NCBI GenBank assembly: GCA_902515625.1
Contig: CABXVD010000002.1
Span: 1-61,466, forward strand
Source: an uncultured Pelagibacteraceae bacterium
Lineage (GTDB): Bacteria; Pseudomonadota; Alphaproteobacteria; Pelagibacterales; Pelagibacteraceae
Length of the DNA stretch: 61,466 nt
Reading direction: 5' to 3'
Shown: positions 14,617 through 37,455 of the stretch, one piece after another
Numbering within the stretch: the stretch's first letter is position 1
How the letters are laid out: each line of letters starts with the position of its first letter
Program-made: the position numbers and the translations under genes
Notes under the pieces: model-generated
What the model saw: the letters and a program-made list of their open reading frames with translations, nothing else
What the model was told of the DNA's origin: nothing
Database searches by the model: none

Positions 14617-15909
14617 TTACTTAAGATTTAGATATTGGCTATTTAAAAGTCCTACTGCTTTCAGGAGATTATATTGGGCCATAAGGTAGTTTTTCTCAGA
14701 ATTTGCCAAAGATATTTGAGCAGAAAGTAATAATGCATTTGATTGAATAACATCGAGAGTATTTCTTGATCCTCTCTCATACTCTGCTGCAATTCCCTCA
14801 TAAGCTATTTGAGATGATTTAACCTGAATTTTTACTGAGCTTAGAAAACTTTCTGAAGATTGCAAACTTGACCAGGCACTAGCAACATTAGTTTCATTAG
14901 TTCTAACAGCATCATCTAATAATAATCTTTTTCGTGTGGTTAAATTTGAGTTTTTATTAATAGTCGATCTTTTTTTCCCGCCAGAATAAAAAGGCCAATT
15001 TAAAGTTGCTTTTAATGTATCTTTTTCCCTTTCATCAATGGTTGAAGTAAGGTCATCTGAGTAAGATCTCTCTAAAGATAAAGATGCTGTAGGTTTTAAG
15101 TCGGACTCAGAAATTGCTAAATCTTTTTCAGACTTTTCTAGATCAAGTTTTGCAATTAAAATATCTGGATTATTTTGTTTAGAAAGATTAATGGCTTCAC
15201 TAAGACTACCTGGAATACCAACAATTGCGTTAGAATTTTTTTTCAATTGTTTTGGATCATTAATTTTTCCAATTATATTTTCATAGTTTAATTTACTGAT
15301 TAATAAATCACTTTTTGACTTTGCAAATTGAGCTTGAGCACCTGCAAGAGAAGATTCTGATTGTGCTAAATCTGTATTTGTAATCTGACCTCTATCTCTT
15401 CTAATCTTATCATTTTCTACTTGTCTAATTAGAAGATTTAAATTCTGTTCGTTTATTTCTAGTGTTTCTCTAGTTAATATTAAATTTGTAAAAGCATTAA
15501 TTGCACTATGAAGAATATCTTGCTCTTTCTTTACCAATTTAGCCTTTGCCAGGTCTAAAGCTGTAATATTTTTTTTAAGAGTTATATCTCTTCCAAAATC
15601 CAATATTGTTTGTTCTAATTTAATTGAAGTTGTAAGTGGATCAACGTCACTGATTGTTGCATCTCCTCCGCTTTGATTGGTTAGCTTATTGGTATCTTCA
15701 ATACTTTTAGATCCACTTAATGTTAATGAGGGTTTATAATCAGCCTTTGAAATATTTACGTCTTCCTCTGAAGCTTTAATATTTTCTCTTTCAGCATTTA
15801 GTTGAATATTATTTTGGTAAGTTTGGTTTAATGCATCATATAAAGTAACCGAAAATGCGTTACTAAAATAAAATAATGATAAACTAATTAGTACTAATAT
15901 TTTTTTCAT
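14617..15909 (-). CDS. tolC: TolC-family outer membrane efflux protein
   Basis: Signal peptide, duplicated coiled-coil OEP pattern, NWPFYSGG... Confidence 0.82.
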   Translation of the reverse strand: MKKILVLISLSLFYFSNAFSVTLYDALNQTYQNNIQLNAERENIKASEEDVNISKADYKPSLTLSGSKSIEDTNKLTNQSGGDATISDVDPLTTSIKLEQTILDFGRDITLKKNITALDLAKAKLVKKEQDILHSAINAFTNLILTRETLEINEQNLNLLIRQVENDKIRRDRGQITNTDLAQSESSLAGAQAQFAKSKSDLLISKLNYENIIGKINDPKQLKKNSNAIVGIPGSLSEAINLSKQNNPDILIAKLDLEKSEKDLAISESDLKPTASLSLERSYSDDLTSTIDEREKDTLKATLNWPFYSGGKKRSTINKNSNLTTRKRLLLDDAVRTNETNVASAWSSLQSSESFLSSVKIQVKSSQIAYEGIAAEYERGSRNTLDVIQSNALLLSAQISLANSEKNYLMAQYNLLKAVGLLNSQYLNLK

Positions 15910-16835
15910 TTGGTTTTATATACAGCAGATTTAATTTGATGGTTATCATTTAAATTCAAAATTATTGAGGCATATTTAGGCATATTCTTAAACATATTTT
16001 GAGTAATTCTCTGATAAGTTTGCATAAAATTAATTACATCCCCTTTACTCATTATTTTATGGCTACTTTTATTCTTAGTTTTGAGCCAAAGTTTTTTCTC
16101 CTGCTTTAATCGCCATTTTTGTAACAAGCTGAAGCTTTTAGCTTTTAAGTAAATCATACAATTAAGCTGTGAGTATAGCTTTTTATATTTTTTTTTTAAT
16201 TGTTGATTTACGTGTTTTCTCCAAATTAAATTTTGATCATTAGTTTTCTCAAGAGAGTTAATTGGTTTTTTTAATATTTTATTTAACTCAGACCTGGCGC
16301 CAACACACCAACCTTCAAATATAATAATATCTGGTTGTTCATTAATATTATTCCAGTTTTTCTTAGGAAATCTATCATCTATTGCCTTATTAAAATTTGG
16401 TAATTTCAATTTTTTAAATTTTTTGTTTTTTACTTTTTTAAAAAAATCTAACATCATCTTAATATCATGGGTACCTGGCACTCCCCTCGTCATTAACATT
16501 GGGTGAATTTTTTTTGATAAATTTATTCTTTCTTTTCTTGTTTTATAAAAATCATCAATTGAAATTTTAAATACTTTTAGTTTAAAATATTTTTCTAATA
16601 TAATTTTTATAATCGAGCTAATTGTGGTTTTGCCAGTTCCTTGTCCTCCTGCTAAACCTACAAAGTAAGGTTTTTTTTTGTTTGCTTTTTTTGCAATCCA
16701 AAAACATATTGGGATCAAAAAAGACTTTATCATCTTCTCTTTATTTTTAAATTTTTCAGTAGAAGTTTCTTGTGATGTAATAAATTTCACACAGTCATTT
16801 TTCACCTTATTAAAACAAAGACTTGCCGATTGCAT
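15906..16835 (-). CDS. D-glycerate 3-kinase-like P-loop kinase
   Basis: GLAGGQGTGKTTISSII P-loop, SIDDFYKTRKERINLS, RGVPGTHD, FEGWCVGAR. Confidence 0.75.
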   Translation of the reverse strand: MQSASLCFNKVKNDCVKFITSQETSTEKFKNKEKMIKSFLIPICFWIAKKANKKKPYFVGLAGGQGTGKTTISSIIKIILEKYFKLKVFKISIDDFYKTRKERINLSKKIHPMLMTRGVPGTHDIKMMLDFFKKVKNKKFKKLKLPNFNKAIDDRFPKKNWNNINEQPDIIIFEGWCVGARSELNKILKKPINSLEKTNDQNLIWRKHVNQQLKKKYKKLYSQLNCMIYLKAKSFSLLQKWRLKQEKKLWLKTKNKSSHKIMSKGDVINFMQTYQRITQNMFKNMPKYASIILNLNDNHQIKSAVYKTK

Positions 16836-17770: not shown

Positions 17771-17902
17771 TTTTAATTATTTAAACTATCTCTGGTTGAA
17801 GTTATCCACAACCATACAAAATGTAGTTTGGATGTTCACCTTTTGATTCACTTTTGATTCAGTTACAGACTCAAAATACAACCTCTTGAGTGTATTGTAT
17901 AA

Positions 17903-20857: not shown

Positions 20858-21137
20858 TTAGTTCCCTGGACCTCCTGGATCTCCTGGACCACCTGGGCCA
20901 CCTGGGCCACCTGGGCCACCTGGATCTCCTGGGCCACCTGGGCCACCTGGACCTCCTGGATCTCCTGGGCCTCCTGGTCCCATATCCCCTATTCCACCTG
21001 GGCCTCCTGGACCTCCTAAATCACCTATTCCACCTGGCATTCCACCCATATCTCCCGGACCTCCTGGACCTCCTGGCATACCACCCATATCACCCATCGG
21101 ACCCATATCTCCTGGACCACCAGGACCACCTGCCATA
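20858..21137 (-). repeat. Short-period coding repeat (collagen-like Gly-Xaa-Pro triplets)
   Basis: Reiterated cctgggcca/cctggatct/cctggacct 9-nt units; conspicuous local GC rise in an AT-rich window. Confidence 0.9.
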
Positions 21138-23329
21138 GCTCCTGCCATAGCTCCACCCATTGTTCCTGACATTCCATCTTGCATAGCACCACCCATGGCT
21201 TTACCCATGTCACCTTCGCCCATGCCTTCCATTCCCATTGCTGCACCCATTGCATGAGAACCCATAGCTGAAGCTGCTGCACCTTGAGCAGCCATAGCAG
21301 ATCCCATTGCAGCACCTGCTAGTCCTCCTTCTCCATCAGCTGCCATTGCAGCACCTGCTACATTTCCAATTGCTGCTCCTGGATCCACTCCAGTTCCCAT
21401 CGCAGCAGAAACTTGTCCTAAATTCATTCCACCTTTCATTCCACCATCAATTCCCTCTGGCGCTCCTCCCATTATATCTCCTAATTTTGTACCCTCTGGA
21501 CCTCCAGCTAATCCCATGCTTGCCGCCATTTCAGGATTCATTTGTGCATCTAAATTCATTTCTCCCATTCCAACCATTCCACCACTCATAGCTGCTAATC
21601 CCATGTCACCACCTTCCATTCCCATGGCACCACTTAAACCTTTCATACCTTCAGCCCCCATAGCTGCCATAGTACCTTGGTTAACTAAACCTACTTCCAT
21701 CATATCTCCCATAGAAGCAGCTGACATATTTCCAGCCTTTGCCATATCTGCAACACCTTGTATAGCCTTACTACCTAGTCCAGCAACATTTGTTGACATT
21801 ATTGTTGTTACATCCATTCCAGCTATACCTGCTGCACCCATGCTTGCAACCATTCCTGGAGTTAATCCTGTTTGCATAGCCATATCAGTCATTCCTAAAT
21901 TATCTATTTCTCCAGTTTCCATTCCAGTCATGTTTGCCATTGCTGCACCCATGTCAGCTTTAGACATATTATCAATAACTCCACCCACCATGCCTCCAGC
22001 TGGATTATTTGGATCTAAAGCTCCAACACCTAAAGCTGTCATTCCCTCAGGTGGTGCCATTGCCCCTGGCAAACCTCCAGCTAAAGACGGTTTAGCCATT
22101 ACCATGGCACCCATCATCATACCTGTTTCACTGATGTTTTCTGGCATTTCTAAAGCCTCTGGAGCAGCCATATTGTTTGCAAATGAATTTTCCATCGCCA
22201 TTCCTTTTTGAATTGCAGTTTGTTCTTTAGGTGCTTTCCCAGATATTGCCTGACTTATCATTCCAACCGTTCCTGACATTGCTGAAACTATTCCAGCTTC
22301 TGGATTTACAAAAGCTGTTTGAAGTGATTGAGCCATTTGTTCCATTCCAACATCAGCCATAACTTTTCCAATTTCTTTCATTCCTTCAATACCACCCATA
22401 CCTTTGGCCATATCAGTCATTCCTTGCATTCCAATATTAGCTTCCATACTTTTCATCATTTCATCACCCATACCTTTGGCACTCATTGTTGCTACGATTG
22501 CACCAGTCATAGTTTGACCCATTTGACCCATTGCTTCTGGATTAGCAGCAAGTGTTTCAAGTGCAGCAGTTGCTGCACCAACTGGAAGAGCGTTAAGAGC
22601 TCCAGCCATCATCGCAGGATTCATTCCCATCTCTGCAACATTCATAGAAGCAAAATCTCCTGGATTAAAAGTTTCCATATCAAAGTTAGCCGAACCAGTT
22701 ATAGACTCCATATCTACCATACCTGCAGTGGCTAAACCCTCCATTGCTGTACCCATCCCAATACCTTGAGTGTCCAAAGATCCCATCATTCCTTTTGCAT
22801 CAAATCCTGCAGCGTCTAAAGCATTCATTTGACCAGCCATTTTTTGTAATGACACAACTTTTCCAGCTCCCATATGACCAGCTATACTTGATAAAGCAGC
22901 CATCTCCTCTGGGGAAAAATCTTGTGCAAAATCAATTCCTGTCATATCAAGCGCTGTTGGATCAGGAATAGCTCCTAAAGCCATGTCTGTGACACCTTCG
23001 ACTAAAGACATTGCTTGGACTGCAGAAGTAATATCTCCTTTGGATAAACTATCTGTAGCAAACTCCATTGCACTTTCAGCTTGAGCTATTGATACGTCTA
23101 GAGCTTTACCTATATCACTTTTGGCTTCTCCTAAGGCTTCTGTTGCGCCAGATATATTTTCCACCACTTGATTTGCATCTGATGCTAATTGATCAGCAGC
23201 TGCTTGGGCTGAACTTCCCGCTGCTTCTGAAATATTAGACATTGATGCTATATCATTTGCTTTAGCGGCTAAGTTAAAAAATAAAAAAAATATAATTAAA
23301 ATTTTGATTTTATTTTTTAAATACATCAA
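20858..23329 (-). CDS. Exported Met/Gly/Ala-rich repetitive protein with collagen-like GGP/GDP C-terminal tail
   Basis: Long uninterrupted ORF with signal peptide (KIKILIIFFLFFNLAAKA), helical N-terminal region, Met-rich low-complexity middle, (G-G-P/G-D-P)n tail; stop overlaps none, start overlaps stop of upstream small gene. Confidence 0.85.
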   Translation of the reverse strand: MMYLKNKIKILIIFFLFFNLAAKANDIASMSNISEAAGSSAQAAADQLASDANQVVENISGATEALGEAKSDIGKALDVSIAQAESAMEFATDSLSKGDITSAVQAMSLVEGVTDMALGAIPDPTALDMTGIDFAQDFSPEEMAALSSIAGHMGAGKVVSLQKMAGQMNALDAAGFDAKGMMGSLDTQGIGMGTAMEGLATAGMVDMESITGSANFDMETFNPGDFASMNVAEMGMNPAMMAGALNALPVGAATAALETLAANPEAMGQMGQTMTGAIVATMSAKGMGDEMMKSMEANIGMQGMTDMAKGMGGIEGMKEIGKVMADVGMEQMAQSLQTAFVNPEAGIVSAMSGTVGMISQAISGKAPKEQTAIQKGMAMENSFANNMAAPEALEMPENISETGMMMGAMVMAKPSLAGGLPGAMAPPEGMTALGVGALDPNNPAGGMVGGVIDNMSKADMGAAMANMTGMETGEIDNLGMTDMAMQTGLTPGMVASMGAAGIAGMDVTTIMSTNVAGLGSKAIQGVADMAKAGNMSAASMGDMMEVGLVNQGTMAAMGAEGMKGLSGAMGMEGGDMGLAAMSGGMVGMGEMNLDAQMNPEMAASMGLAGGPEGTKLGDIMGGAPEGIDGGMKGGMNLGQVSAAMGTGVDPGAAIGNVAGAAMAADGEGGLAGAAMGSAMAAQGAAASAMGSHAMGAAMGMEGMGEGDMGKAMGGAMQDGMSGTMGGAMAGAMAGGPGGPGDMGPMGDMGGMPGGPGGPGDMGGMPGGIGDLGGPGGPGGIGDMGPGGPGDPGGPGGPGGPGDPGGPGGPGGPGGPGDPGGPGN

Positions 23330-23802
23330 TTACCTTCTTTTATTTTTTCTTGAGCTTTTATAGTAGCTGCTCTCTGAGCATTAACTTTAGCAGTTGCAAT
23401 TTGTTTTTTAAGATTTGATAAAACTGCAGCTCTTTCTGCAATTTCTGGAGTTAGTTCTTTCTCTTTTTTTTTCTTTTTCTTTTTATTTTTTTTGTATGCT
23501 ACAAAAAGCATCTTACCAGTAGCCCAAAACTTCAAAACTGCTTCTGATGATTTTGCTTTTGGAGAAATATTCAAACTCATTCTCATAGCTTCTCTTCCCT
23601 TTTTTAAACCTTCTAATGTTTCTACCTTGGCATTTTTATCACTAAGCATTTCATTATATAGAGCCTCAAAGTAGGCCATATCCCTAATCATATGGTGCTG
23701 ATATTTATTTAGCTCTCCTTTACCTTTTACAAATCTTGCATAAACTTTTGATCCAGCTTTTCTCTGTTTTTTTTTACTTGTCGAGTCTGTTTTAGAAAAC
23801 AT
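23326..23802 (-). CDS. Small exported companion protein (annotated ORF is probably 5' truncated)
   Basis: Shares YPEGM...FE..Y...L...M..SL..SP..A...FW..G..L with the 36796..37455 product; open frame continues upstream through YPEG to a signal peptide (see finding). Confidence 0.75.
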   Translation of the reverse strand: MFSKTDSTSKKKQRKAGSKVYARFVKGKGELNKYQHHMIRDMAYFEALYNEMLSDKNAKVETLEGLKKGREAMRMSLNISPKAKSSEAVLKFWATGKMLFVAYKKNKKKKKKKEKELTPEIAERAAVLSNLKKQIATAKVNAQRAATIKAQEKIKEGN

Positions 23803-24217
23803 CCCTTCTGGATAATTTATTTTTTCGTAAACAAATGCTGCTGGTCTTTCATTTTCAGGCCAATCTTTTAATTTCTCGTACTTTTCGCAATAGATGCAAT
23901 CTTTTTCTTTTTTGTCTTTTGCTAATGAATTTGATGATGAAAAAATTAAAATATTGAGAACTAAAATTAAAGAAGCTATCTCAAAATATTTTTTAAAATT
24001 TGGGCCTGGCTAAACCTTTGCTATAATGTCGCATCACAATTTAGAATACTTCGAATTTATAAAAATAAAAAGTATTAAAATTTAGGATAAATAATGAATT
24101 TTAATATTTTATTCAATCAAGAATTGTAAATATAAAAATTTTTTAAAAATCAGCAAAAGAATTATTTACTGAAATAATAAAAATTAAGATAGGTAGTAAA
24201 ATTGCTTTTGTAAAAAA

Positions 24218-25090
24218 TTATTTAATTTTTTCTATGTCATTTATATTTGATAAAGAATTATTTAATTCTTCAATATTTTCTCTTAAAGCTAAACTAGAAA
24301 TTGAATAAATCATAATTAGCAATAACACTAAGGGTAATGAAGTGATGATTGAAGCATTACTTTTAATCAATAATATATAAAAAACAATAAACAAAGCTGA
24401 ACGAATTAAGACTGTTTTTCTATAAACACCAATAATTGAAAGGGAATGTTTTAATAAATTAAAAAAACTCATTTGAGATGGGCCAAAATACCTAGTTCCT
24501 CTAATCGATGGTAGAGATACTAAATCTTTTTCTACTTTTCTTAATGATCCAGAGAAACTACTCCAAGTAGATTTTTCTTTTAACATTTTTTCAATTGTTA
24601 ATTTTGATAGACAGGTAAAGTTTCCAAATTTAATTGATTGACCTGTGAAAGCTAAAGTTAAAAATTTGTGAAATTTGTAACATATTTGAAAAAATAACCC
24701 CTCAGATCTTTTAACTCTTTCTCCTATAATTGATTGCTCACCTACTTGCTCAGAAAGTTTAATGAAGTTTCTGATTTCTTCAGGTCTATCTTCTCCATCC
24801 CCATCCATTGGAATTACATAATCAAATTCTTTTTTTTCATAAATATATTTTAATCCAGAAGCTATGCACCGTGCATGTCCCCTATTTTGTTTCATGTTTA
24901 TGATTTCAAAAGAATGAATATTTTCTAGATTTGGGTAATTATCTAAAATTTGTTGTGATGACGCATCATTTATTACTAAAATTGATACTTCTGCGTTTAC
25001 ACTATTTAGCTCTCCATTAATATTTTCAATTAATTTTGTTAAAGACTCCCTATCGTTATAAATAGGAATTAAAATTGTATATTTTTTCAT
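24218..25090 (-). CDS. Family 2 glycosyltransferase (dolichol-phosphate-mannose-synthase-like)
   Basis: MKKYTILIPIYNDRESL..., VIPMDGDGEDRPEEI DxD motif, C-terminal TM segments. Confidence 0.82.
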   Translation of the reverse strand: MKKYTILIPIYNDRESLTKLIENINGELNSVNAEVSILVINDASSQQILDNYPNLENIHSFEIINMKQNRGHARCIASGLKYIYEKKEFDYVIPMDGDGEDRPEEIRNFIKLSEQVGEQSIIGERVKRSEGLFFQICYKFHKFLTLAFTGQSIKFGNFTCLSKLTIEKMLKEKSTWSSFSGSLRKVEKDLVSLPSIRGTRYFGPSQMSFFNLLKHSLSIIGVYRKTVLIRSALFIVFYILLIKSNASIITSLPLVLLLIMIYSISSLALRENIEELNNSLSNINDIEKIK

Positions 25091-25093
25091 AAA

Positions 25094-26416
25094 CTATCTT
25101 GAACCTACACAGACACTATCAAGACACATATAATCTTTCAATTTATCTAGTTTAGATCTTTCTACAAAACCTTCCCAAACTGGTCTTGATTTTAGATAAT
25201 AAGATAAATTACCAGCATTCCATTCATTACCTAAAACAACAGTAATTTTTGAATCAAATTGTTGATCCCATGCATATTGTGTTTTGATGGCAATTTCCTT
25301 TCCAGGATAATCTGTTCTTTTATCGTCCTTTGAAATTGATACGTAAGCATAAAGTACAGGTGATAAGAAGAAAAAGAACACAAATCCAATCACAAATGGT
25401 TTTAATTTTTTGATATTGATTTGAGTTTTAAGAATGTAAACAAATAATGTGCCAAAAAATAAATAAAATGGTGTCATCCACATAGTTCTAATTTTTGATC
25501 CGGTTATGAATGAAGTTAAAAACATTAATAAAATTGGTAAAAGATTGATAGATAATAAAAAAAGTAATTTTTTATCTTTAAAATTTATTTTAAATTTTAA
25601 TTTTTGAACTAATAACCAAGTTAAAATTAAAAATGGAATTAATATCCCAATTTGCTTCCCTACAAAAATTAAAGGAAATTGAATATGGTTTATTAAGCTT
25701 GATTGTTCCAAGCCTGTTCTACCAAGACCATAAGTAATTGTAATAAACTCATTGTTGGTAAGCCAAATAAAGTGGGGAACCAAAGCAACTAAAAATACTT
25801 CAGCAGTTATCAAATAATTAAAATCAAATTTTCGGTCTTTCTTGATGAAGATTAGATAAATAAACAAAAGATCAATAGACACTAAAAGATAAAGAAATAA
25901 GTATTTGGATAAAAAACCAAACGCTGCAAACAGACCTACTAAAAAACAGTCAGAAAATTTAATGTTTTTTCTACTAAATATTCTCCATGAATAATAAGCA
26001 GTGAGCGACCAGAAAGGTAGTTGGCAAACATTTACGTTAAATTCTGGTGAAGTAAAATTATAAAAATAAATAGTTTCAATTAATAAAACTGAAATTAAAC
26101 CTAATAAGTTGTTATTTAAGATTTCTTTAGAGAGTTTAAAAACATAATAGAACGAGAAAACTACAAAAATTTGACTAAGAAAATAATAAGCCCAATCTTG
26201 TGAACCAAAAATTTGATAAAATACTTCTGGAAAAAAAGCACTCATGGGTGGGTGTTTATTAAATCCCCAATCTAAATTACTCCCCCAAGCTAAAGCTTCA
26301 ATAGTGTCCAAAGGTAAGTTATGATTAGTAAGCGATGGAATCGAGGTCCAGAATATTAGATGAGCTAAAACAAAAATATAAAAAATATTATTTATATTCT
26401 TACTATTAATGCTCAT
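25094..26416 (-). CDS. ArnT/PMT-like (GT39/GT83) membrane glycosyltransferase
   Basis: Multi-TM protein with GFNKHPPMSAFFPEVFYQIFG motif typical of lipid-linked-sugar glycosyltransferases. Confidence 0.75.
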   Translation of the reverse strand: MSINSKNINNIFYIFVLAHLIFWTSIPSLTNHNLPLDTIEALAWGSNLDWGFNKHPPMSAFFPEVFYQIFGSQDWAYYFLSQIFVVFSFYYVFKLSKEILNNNLLGLISVLLIETIYFYNFTSPEFNVNVCQLPFWSLTAYYSWRIFSRKNIKFSDCFLVGLFAAFGFLSKYLFLYLLVSIDLLFIYLIFIKKDRKFDFNYLITAEVFLVALVPHFIWLTNNEFITITYGLGRTGLEQSSLINHIQFPLIFVGKQIGILIPFLILTWLLVQKLKFKINFKDKKLLFLLSINLLPILLMFLTSFITGSKIRTMWMTPFYLFFGTLFVYILKTQINIKKLKPFVIGFVFFFFLSPVLYAYVSISKDDKRTDYPGKEIAIKTQYAWDQQFDSKITVVLGNEWNAGNLSYYLKSRPVWEGFVERSKLDKLKDYMCLDSVCVGSR

Positions 26417-35819: not shown

Positions 35820-36794
35820 TTATTGACCAGACTCAGTATCTCCGGCACAACTTCCTGTGCAATCTGCTTCTGACTTAGCTTTCTGGTCAGCACGGTCTTG
35901 TTCTGTATAGGAAGCAGCTTCCTCTGCCGCTCCCATTCCTTCTCCTAAACCTCCTGACTGTATTTCAGCTGCCATTTCTTTCATTGCTGCATTGTGCGCT
36001 TCAGCATCAAAAAAATCACTTCTCATAGTTTCCAATGTTGGCATCACATCTTTACTAAATCCAGCTTCTTTAGCAGCCTTTAATACATTTGCAGTTGTCT
36101 CAGCTATACCTAATTTTTCAGCCTCAACAATAACTTCCATTTGCTTTTCAAACTCCTCAGGTGAAATTCCTCTTTTAGCAGCATCTAAAACTTCAGACTT
36201 TAAGGAAGGTTCGTCTATTACTGTTTTTGCAATATCCTCAAAACTAACAGTTTTTAAACCTAAATCATTAATATTTTTACTAACAACAAAAAGATTGAGA
36301 CCTTTTTTTTCAATTATTGTCATGTCTTTCACTAAAGAAGTTAGTTTTTCTTTTTTGATAACTTTCATTGCTTCGGAAGTTTGAAAAATTTGTTCTAACA
36401 CTTTATCTTCTAAGTTATTCATGTCCACTACAGATAAATCATTACTAATACGTTTTGGTAGTGAATTATTAATATCACCAAGTGATCTATCAAGATAATT
36501 TAGAGTTTTTTCAGTTATTTCAAAATTATTTGGATTAAAATTTTCTTTAGCAAATTCTGTAACTTGATCTATCTCATTGATAGCATCATCAAAAATTTTT
36601 GATTGTTTAGAGTCACCTGAAGGTAATGAGCTTAATTCTTTTCTAATTTTATTAGTTTCCTTTACAAATTTGTTGTAACTTTTTTCAAGTTCACCATCTG
36701 CGTAAACTAAATTATAGGAAAAAAAAGTCATTGTTATTAATACTATTATAATTCTTTTTAATTTTAATAGTTTATGATGATACACAGCAGTCAA
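35820..36794 (-). CDS. Exported helical protein with Gly-rich and Cys-containing C-terminus (diverged counterpart of the 20858..23329 product)
   Basis: Signal peptide (IIIVLITMTFFSYNLVYA), helical body, GGLGEGMGAAEEAAS...CTGSC tail; downstream of a paralog of the 23326 gene. Confidence 0.65.
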   Translation of the reverse strand: MTAVYHHKLLKLKRIIIVLITMTFFSYNLVYADGELEKSYNKFVKETNKIRKELSSLPSGDSKQSKIFDDAINEIDQVTEFAKENFNPNNFEITEKTLNYLDRSLGDINNSLPKRISNDLSVVDMNNLEDKVLEQIFQTSEAMKVIKKEKLTSLVKDMTIIEKKGLNLFVVSKNINDLGLKTVSFEDIAKTVIDEPSLKSEVLDAAKRGISPEEFEKQMEVIVEAEKLGIAETTANVLKAAKEAGFSKDVMPTLETMRSDFFDAEAHNAAMKEMAAEIQSGGLGEGMGAAEEAASYTEQDRADQKAKSEADCTGSCAGDTESGQ

Positions 36795-36795
36795 T

Positions 36796-37455
36796 CTATC
36801 TTTTCTTTATTTTATTATATAGATCTTTATTTTCTTTATCTTTTAATGAAGAGTTAAATTTATTAATGGCTTTTTTATATTTAGCTATTAATTTTTCACG
36901 TTTTTGAATATCCTTATTTATTTTATTTTCATTTATTTTACCTTGATTTAAAAAATCTCCCATAACCCAAAATCTTTCCATTGCGTCTTCTGGCGAAACA
37001 CTTAAATCCATCCCTAAAGATTTTCTCATTTTTTCTTTTGATTTGTTTAATTTTATTAAAGCAACTATATCTTTTTTATATTTTTTTTTTTCAGGCCAAT
37101 ATTCAATAAATTTTTTAATCCTTTTTTCTTTTTTTTTTAATTTATTTAAATAAAATAATTCGAACATTGCTAATGCATATAATTGGTCTCCTGGCTTCCT
37201 TTGATGATAAATTTGATTTTTTTTAAAAGTTAGAGACATTTCTTTAGAAGCTTTAGGAGCCATACAGGTAAATTTTTTTTTACACTCCTCTCCAAAAAGT
37301 TTAATCATTCCCTCAGGATATTTTGTTGGTTCTGAATAAGTGCCCAATGCTTTAATCTCTTCCATTACTGATAGAGAGTTTTTTGTGTCACTATAAGAGA
37401 TCGAAATAAATAAAACCCAAAATAATATTAACCAGGAAAATGCAATAGATTTCAT
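36796..37455 (-). CDS. Exported protein paralogous to the 23326..23802 product
   Basis: Signal peptide; YPEGMIKLF, MFELFYLNKLKK, KMRKSLGMDLSVSPEDAMERFWVMGDFL align with the other cassette. Confidence 0.75.
   Translation of the reverse strand: MKSIAFSWLILFWVLFISISYSDTKNSLSVMEEIKALGTYSEPTKYPEGMIKLFGEECKKKFTCMAPKASKEMSLTFKKNQIYHQRKPGDQLYALAMFELFYLNKLKKKEKRIKKFIEYWPEKKKYKKDIVALIKLNKSKEKMRKSLGMDLSVSPEDAMERFWVMGDFLNQGKINENKINKDIQKREKLIAKYKKAINKFNSSLKDKENKDLYNKIKKR

What the first reader, a model, noticed from the sequence alone, without database searches (positions are those of the whole stretch)
20858..23329. Exported ~823-aa Met-rich protein with a collagen-like GGP/GDP tail
The ORF has a Sec-type signal peptide, an Ala/Ser-rich helical N-terminal part, several hundred residues of quasi-repeats rich in Met, Gly and Ala (for example GMTDMAMQTGLTPGMVASMGAAGIAGMDVTTIM), then Gly-Gly-Pro/Gly-Asp-Pro triplets to the stop. 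A hand count gives about 110 Met (~13%) and no Cys. If the host is SAR11, which is known to need reduced sulfur compounds because it lacks assimilatory sulfate reduction, exporting this much methionine is costly and suggests a strongly selected role. Candidate roles are a surface or periplasmic filament, Met-based Cu(I) binding, an oxidant sink, or a methionine reserve. No family I recognise covers the body of the protein.
Basis: partly seen in the sequence, partly recalled or inferred. Interest (0 to 1): 0.85.

Follow-up and report, generated by a model that had tools for sequence, protein, structure and literature searches.

The report
SAR11 exported methionine-rich protein pair
Some ocean SAR11 bacteria export a large protein that is about one-eighth methionine; it belongs to a previously unlabelled two-gene family found only in SAR11 in these searches, and in one lineage its partner gene has no start codon of its own and appears to be read only if the ribosome skips one base.

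Summary
In detail: an 822-823 aa exported protein, 13% Met, no Cys/Trp/Arg, under purifying selection, conserved at 11-16% Met in 34 Pelagibacteraceae loci, without a Pfam, NCBIfam, PHROG or PDB sequence match. The interpretation changes. (1) It is the second gene of a pair: a basic secreted CxYC helical partner, then an acidic large protein. Relatives with the same N-terminal domain and partner but different bodies occur in SAR11 (another pair lies in this window; one genome fuses both). (2) Met is not essential to the scaffold: a full-length ortholog with its own partner has 2.9% Met, mostly Leu/Ile/Val at conserved-Met positions. (3) The protein is extremely poor in side-chain N and C, so 'costly' is questionable. 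(4) The collagen-like tail is a variable Gly/Pro tail. Unexpectedly, in one clade (15/15 loci) the partner's signal-peptide frame has no start codon and is preceded by ATG...TTA GCC AGG Y in another frame; a complete relative lacks matching tRNAs for GCC and AGG, so a Ty3/Ty1-like programmed +1 frameshift is the best reading. I favour an envelope or surface structural pair; an oxidant sink is the main rival.

The parts
20858..23326 (-). Met/Gly/Ala-rich exported protein; likely ATG start at 23326-23324 (TTG 23329 is one codon upstream)
   Evidence: orthologs; TGATG overlap with partner stop
23254..23326 (-). Sec signal peptide of the Met-rich protein (about 24 aa, AKA|ND)
   Evidence: sequence; aligned in orthologs
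22757..23215 (-). N-terminal helical domain shared with other SAR11 large proteins of different bodies
   Evidence: hhalign 97.9%, E 4e-13; profile built only from non-Met-rich relatives hits here, E 6.7e-16
20861..21125 (-). variable Gly/Pro tail (collagen-like triplets near the end)
   Evidence: not conserved
23326..24009 (-). partner reading frame: secreted, basic (net about +23), CxYC, all-helical; no start codon for its signal peptide in this frame
24005..24034 (-). candidate recoding signal: ATG (24034-24032) ... GGT TTA GCC AGG (24007-24005) then C; a +1 shift skipping A24007 joins the ATG frame to the partner frame; the ATG frame stops at TAA 23995-23993
   Evidence: motif once in the own genome
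19832..20839 (-). exported GH10-like protein, third gene of the operon in most loci
   Evidence: Pfam GH10 below cut-off; cluster 2 in 22 of 35 loci
24218..26416 (-). GT2 and PMT_2 glycosyltransferase genes upstream (setting A)
36796..37455 (-). second, divergent partner homolog in the same window
   Evidence: E 1.2e-25
35820..36794 (-). second large-protein homolog (324 aa, not Met-rich) with the same N-terminal domain

Best explanation
One member of a two-gene exported protein family found only in Pelagibacteraceae here: a small basic helical partner and a large acidic protein whose N-terminal domain is shared across members while the bodies differ (shown by homology, synteny and one fusion). 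Inferred: partner and N-terminal domain bind each other and anchor or assemble the large protein as an extended helical structural element of the periplasm or cell surface. In this subtype Met stands where relatives have Leu/Ile/Val, and Gly/Ala stand where they have polar residues; I infer a flexible structural protein that is cheap in N and C, its sulfur coming from abundant organosulfur such as DMSP. In the clade that includes the window, synthesis of the secreted partner, and by translational coupling (TGATG) probably of the Met-rich protein, appears gated by a +1 frameshift at GCC_AGG_Y.
For: Pairing: a partner precedes the large protein wherever the contig reaches; relatives with other bodies keep the pair; partner and N-domain lie in one ORF in G022; charges are opposite in all 27 pairs checked, roughly +13 to +26 and -23 to -70. 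Shared N-domain: hhalign 97.9%, E 4e-13, E 1e-13 to 1e-16 per genome. Met as hydrophobe: of 82 columns at least 90% Met the low-Met ortholog has L22 I18 M14 V10, gap 9; substitutions of Met within the clade are I, L, V. Economy: side-chain N 0.104 vs 0.346 +/- 0.078 and C 1.99 vs 3.16 +/- 0.22 over 303 neighbours. Frameshift; the startless N-terminus has dN/dS 0.29 and is open only in that frame.
Against: No usable structure of the large protein (pLDDT 39.8); partner (pLDDT 84) has no PDB fold match. Location, binding and structural role are inferred. Met columns are not more conserved relative to other residues than Met in neighbour proteins. GCC_AGG_T also occurs inside an ordinary gene of this window (15906-16835), so the heptamer alone cannot shift efficiently, and no RNA structure around the site is conserved in all loci.
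Confidence: 0.45

Rival explanations
1. Oxidant sink: the Met residues react with extracytoplasmic oxidants and are recycled by periplasmic methionine sulfoxide reductases.
For: About 108 Met and no Cys per exported molecule. Exported repair exists in hosts: five well-assembled setting-A carriers have MsrP; G000 (the own genome), G004, G279 and the low-Met carrier G338, where MsrP was not found, encode an MsrA with a signal peptide.
Against: Non-carriers have the same exported repair enzymes; no msr gene in the neighbourhood clusters; a full-length ortholog is low-Met.
Confidence: 0.25
2. Surface variation protein: the interchangeable bodies are selected by phage or grazers and the Met content is incidental.
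For: Patchy distribution (11 strong hits in 297 genomes), several genomic settings, other bodies on the same N-domain, glycosyltransferase, polysaccharide-lyase and sulfatase neighbours.
Against: The Met-rich body itself is conserved (dN/dS 0.17), not diversifying.
Confidence: 0.15
3. Cu(I) binding by Met ligands.
For: High Met, exported.
Against: MM and MxM pairs depleted; no copper genes among annotated neighbours; low-Met ortholog.
Confidence: 0.05
4. Methionine or sulfur reserve.
For: 13% Met; SAR11 depends on reduced sulfur (PMC5069961).
Against: Exported, whole-sequence conservation, no SAM riboswitch or other Rfam family at the locus.
Confidence: 0.05
5. For the partner gene: no frameshift. 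Either an unusual start codon is used, or the ATG frame is a short leader peptide and translation begins at the internal ATG (23802).
For: ATT/ATA codons are present in places; GCC_AGG_T is tolerated in another gene.
Against: No start-like codon at a shared position, and no ATG, GTG, TTG or CTG in the first 28 codons in any of 15 loci; the N-terminus is under purifying selection and is an ordinary ATG-started signal peptide in sister loci.
Confidence: 0.3

Closest known systems
Methionine-rich cysteine-free proteins (MRPs; Liang et al. 2012, PMC3514235)
   Same: High Met, no Cys, possible MetO chemistry.
   Different: Those were chosen at 20% Met or more; this has 13%, is exported, is part of a conserved two-gene family and has a low-Met ortholog.
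MrpX-type periplasmic Met-rich oxidant sinks (from memory; the paper is not held)
   Same: Extracytoplasmic Met-rich protein in hosts that have extracytoplasmic MetO repair.
   Different: No linkage to msr genes; homology not tested; much larger protein.
Ty3 (GCG_AGU_U) and Ty1 (CUU_AGG_C) +1 frameshift sites (review PMC5009743)
   Same: P-site codon without a well-matched tRNA (Ty3), slow A-site codon AGG (Ty1), Gly codon GGC in the +1 frame (Ty1).
   Different: Bacterial, at the 5' end of a signal-peptide gene, site GCC_AGG_Y, no product shown.
Bacterial collagen-like proteins
   Same: Gly-x-Pro triplets at the C-terminus of some members.
   Different: Short, Gly-Gly/Asp-Pro, not kept as strict triplets in most orthologs.
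Glycoside hydrolase family 10 (for the third gene)
   Same: Weak Pfam match; NEP and TEA motifs.
   Different: Below the curated cut-off.

Membership tests
Collagen-like protein | Long uninterrupted Gly-X-Y stretch conserved in the family | tested here: not met
   13 triplets in the window, 3 to 30 among orthologs
Met-rich Cys-free protein (MRP) | 20% Met or more | tested here: not met
   13.2%; orthologs 11-16%
Met-rich Cys-free protein (MRP) | No Cys | tested here: met
   0 Cys in all copies
Met-type Cu(I) binding protein | Closely spaced Met ligands (MM, MxM) | tested here: not met
   spacings 1 and 2 depleted; 3-5 enriched as in helices
Msr-linked oxidant sink (MrpX type) | Gene linkage to methionine sulfoxide reductase | tested here: not met
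   none among clustered neighbours; MsrP or exported MsrA lie elsewhere
Programmed +1 frameshift | Start codon in frame 0 and a coding frame without its own start | tested here: met
   15 of 15 loci
Programmed +1 frameshift | Conserved shift site | tested here: met
   TTAGCCAGG invariant in 15
Programmed +1 frameshift | Slow A-site codon and weak P-site pairing | tested here: met
   complete relative G012: Ala only UGC; Arg UCU, ACG, UCG; Gly GCC present; incomplete carrier G256 also shows no CCU or GGC; AGG 3.4 and GCC 3.8 per 1000 codons
Programmed +1 frameshift | Shifted product observed | not testable with these tools
   needs mass spectrometry, ribosome profiling or reporters
SAR11 partner + N-domain protein family (defined here) | Partner gene next to a large exported protein with the N-domain | tested here: met
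SAM riboswitch-controlled gene | SAM-II or SAM-V element upstream | tested here: not met
   none at gathering thresholds
GH10 (third gene) | Pfam score over cut-off | tested here: not met
   15.9 vs 22.1 bits

The most novel reading that the evidence does not exclude
A SAR11 clade expresses this exported Met-rich protein pair through a conserved programmed +1 frameshift at GCC_AGG_Y that exploits its minimal tRNA set (no tRNA-Ala GGC, no tRNA-Arg CCU). Since AGG is an Arg codon and the Met-rich protein contains no Arg and little N, the shift might even rise when charged Arg-tRNA is short; that last step is pure speculation.
Probability: 0.55. Interest if true: 0.78.

Novelty: new variant of a known kind. 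Interest (0 to 1): 0.62.

Why it matters
SAR11 are among the most abundant cells in the ocean and few of their envelope or surface structures are known. A SAR11-restricted exported pair with swappable bodies, one of them very Met-rich and poor in N and C, gives a concrete target for work on cell surface, oxidant defence and elemental economy. A conserved frameshift in a streamlined genome with a minimal tRNA set would be a clean natural case of missing tRNAs and rare codons being used to control translation, and it is easy to test with a reporter.

Tried and rejected
AlphaFold of the Met-rich protein with 35 orthologs: pLDDT 39.8, not used. Foldseek of the partner against PDB: best E 1.1, nothing usable. 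PDB sequence profiles: nothing meaningful. Viral contigs and phages: none. Riboswitch at the locus: none in Rfam. Consensus RNA structure around the shift site: none. 'Met is specially conserved': neighbour controls show similar Met conservation. Paper searches for Pelagibacter with methionine-rich, collagen, or SAR11 with programmed frameshift found nothing relevant. My working idea that setting-A hosts lack extracytoplasmic MetO repair was wrong: they have MsrP. Reading the startless frame as an assembly error was dropped because 15 separate assemblies share it.

Full report
What is there. The ORF 20858-23329(-) is as described: 823 codons, 109 Met (13.2%), no Cys, Trp or Arg, a Sec signal peptide and a Gly/Pro tail. 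The likely start is the ATG one codon inside, which overlaps the preceding gene's stop as TGATG. There is no match in Pfam, NCBIfam, PHROGs or PDB sequences.

Relatives and host. A scan of 84,980 species genomes gave 34 loci, all Pelagibacteraceae (SAR11), 60-90% identical. In a sample of 297 genomes of the family, 11 have a strong match (8 of 127 at 90% completeness or more), in 2 of 14 genera. None was found in viral contigs or phages. Complete copies are about 770-850 aa with 12-16% Met, no Cys, a signal peptide and a Gly/Pro-rich C-terminus. Median dN/dS is 0.17. The tail is not strictly collagen-like: its longest Gly-every-third run varies from 3 to 30 triplets, and at DNA level it is a 9/18/27-bp tandem array, as expected of a slippage-prone tail.

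It is the second gene of a pair. Directly upstream, wherever the contig reaches, lies a secreted basic protein with an N-terminal CxYC and a Lys-rich segment; its model is all helical at pLDDT 84 with no PDB fold match. Downstream, in 22 of 35 loci, is an exported GH10-like protein. The cassette occurs in different chromosomal settings: A, with GT2, PMT_2, DUF1800, DUF1501, polysaccharide lyases and sulfatase; B, between TRAP and ABC transporter genes; and others.

A wider family. Weak hits led to proteins of 324 to 1,648 aa with quite different, coiled-coil or Ala-rich bodies. They share the N-terminal domain (hhalign 97.9%, E 4e-13; a profile made only from the non-Met-rich ones hits the Met-rich ones at E 1e-13 to 1e-16 per genome), and each is preceded by a partner homolog. 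This window carries a second such pair at 35820-37455. In G022 partner and N-domain lie in one ORF. The partner profile found nothing in about 285 other genomes of the class. The unit is therefore a SAR11 two-gene exported system, and the Met-rich protein is one body type.

What the Met is for. G338 has a full-length ortholog (32% identity, E 3e-123) with its own partner, but only 22 Met in 764 aa. At 82 columns that are at least 90% Met in the Met-rich clade it has Leu 22, Ile 18, Met 14, Val 10, gap 9. The Met-rich copies also swap Met for I, L, V. So Met sits mostly at hydrophobic positions. Met columns are not more conserved, relative to the rest, than Met in neighbour proteins. MM and MxM are depleted and spacings 3-5 enriched, a helix pattern rather than a copper motif. 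The family is extreme in another way: mean side-chain N 0.104 per residue (303 neighbours 0.346 +/- 0.078, minimum 0.121) and side-chain C 1.99 (3.16 +/- 0.22, minimum 2.66); the low-Met ortholog is at 0.209 and 2.51. It has been argued for Pelagibacter that reduced sulfur is rarely limiting (PMC5069961), so trading C and N for S could be a saving. That is inference.

Oxidant sink. Extracytoplasmic repair of oxidised Met is available: five well-assembled setting-A carriers have MsrP, and the own (66% complete) genome, G004, G279 and the low-Met carrier G338, where MsrP was not found, encode an MsrA with a signal peptide. Non-carriers have the same enzymes, so this permits the oxidant-sink idea but does not single it out.

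The missing start codon. In all 15 setting-A loci with the upstream region present, the partner's signal-peptide frame begins right after a TAG and has no ATG, GTG, TTG or CTG in its first 28 codons. That stretch is coding: dN/dS 0.29, 95-96 stops in each of the other two frames summed over the 15 sequences, and in sister loci the same region starts with an ordinary ATG. Just upstream is ATG (AAA) GGT TTA GCC AGG Y, with TTAGCCAGG invariant and the ATG always in frame with GCC AGG, even where the distance changes by whole codons; that frame stops within 0-4 codons after AGG. GGTTTAGCCAGG occurs once in the own genome, up to one mismatch. A +1 shift that skips the A of AGG joins the frames and gives M-K-G-L-A-G..., a good signal-peptide start. 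The decoding set fits: the complete relative G012 has 32 tRNAs, with one Ala tRNA (UGC), Arg tRNAs UCU, ACG and UCG but no CCU, and Gly GCC. So GCC is poorly matched in the P site, AGG is slow in the A site, and GGY is well decoded in the new frame, the logic described for Ty3 and Ty1 (PMC5009743). The type-A partners form one group in the tree (83/88), which suits one origin and long maintenance. Against: GCC_AGG_T occurs inside an ordinary gene here, so context must matter, and no product has been seen.

Verdict. Real, unusual and not labelled in the libraries searched. Met-richness is a property of one body type in a SAR11-specific exported pair rather than the defining chemistry of the family. 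That Met was gained rather than lost is suggested by the low-Met relatives, but the tree does not place the low-Met ortholog firmly.

Noticed in passing
35820-37455: A second, non-Met-rich partner plus N-domain pair in the same window.
   Followed up: partly
24005-24034: Conserved TTAGCCAGGY recoding-like signal in front of a startless signal-peptide frame.
   Followed up: yes
17794-17883: Rfam SAR11_0636 sRNA, 112.6 bits, minus strand.
   Followed up: no
L074:6344-8362: Partner domain and N-domain protein in one ORF (G022).
   Followed up: partly
L155, L156, L157, L158, L159: SAR11 genomes in which MsrP was not found encode an MsrA with a Sec signal peptide; genomes with MsrP seem to lack it (small sample).
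   Followed up: partly
L010, L011, L013, L015, L016 just after the shift site: TGGYAG-taaat-CTRCCA hairpin about 10 bases after AGG, with a compensated change in L016; absent in other loci (read by eye).
   Followed up: partly
about 24100-24130 (-) and the same place in setting-A loci: Conserved TACACGT...AATTGAA block about 70-95 bases upstream of the ATG; possible promoter or regulator site.
   Followed up: no
L072:3358-5652: The low-Met ortholog carries several near-repeats of the form D-x-x-L-I-T-S-N-A-x-A-x-T-L.
   Followed up: no
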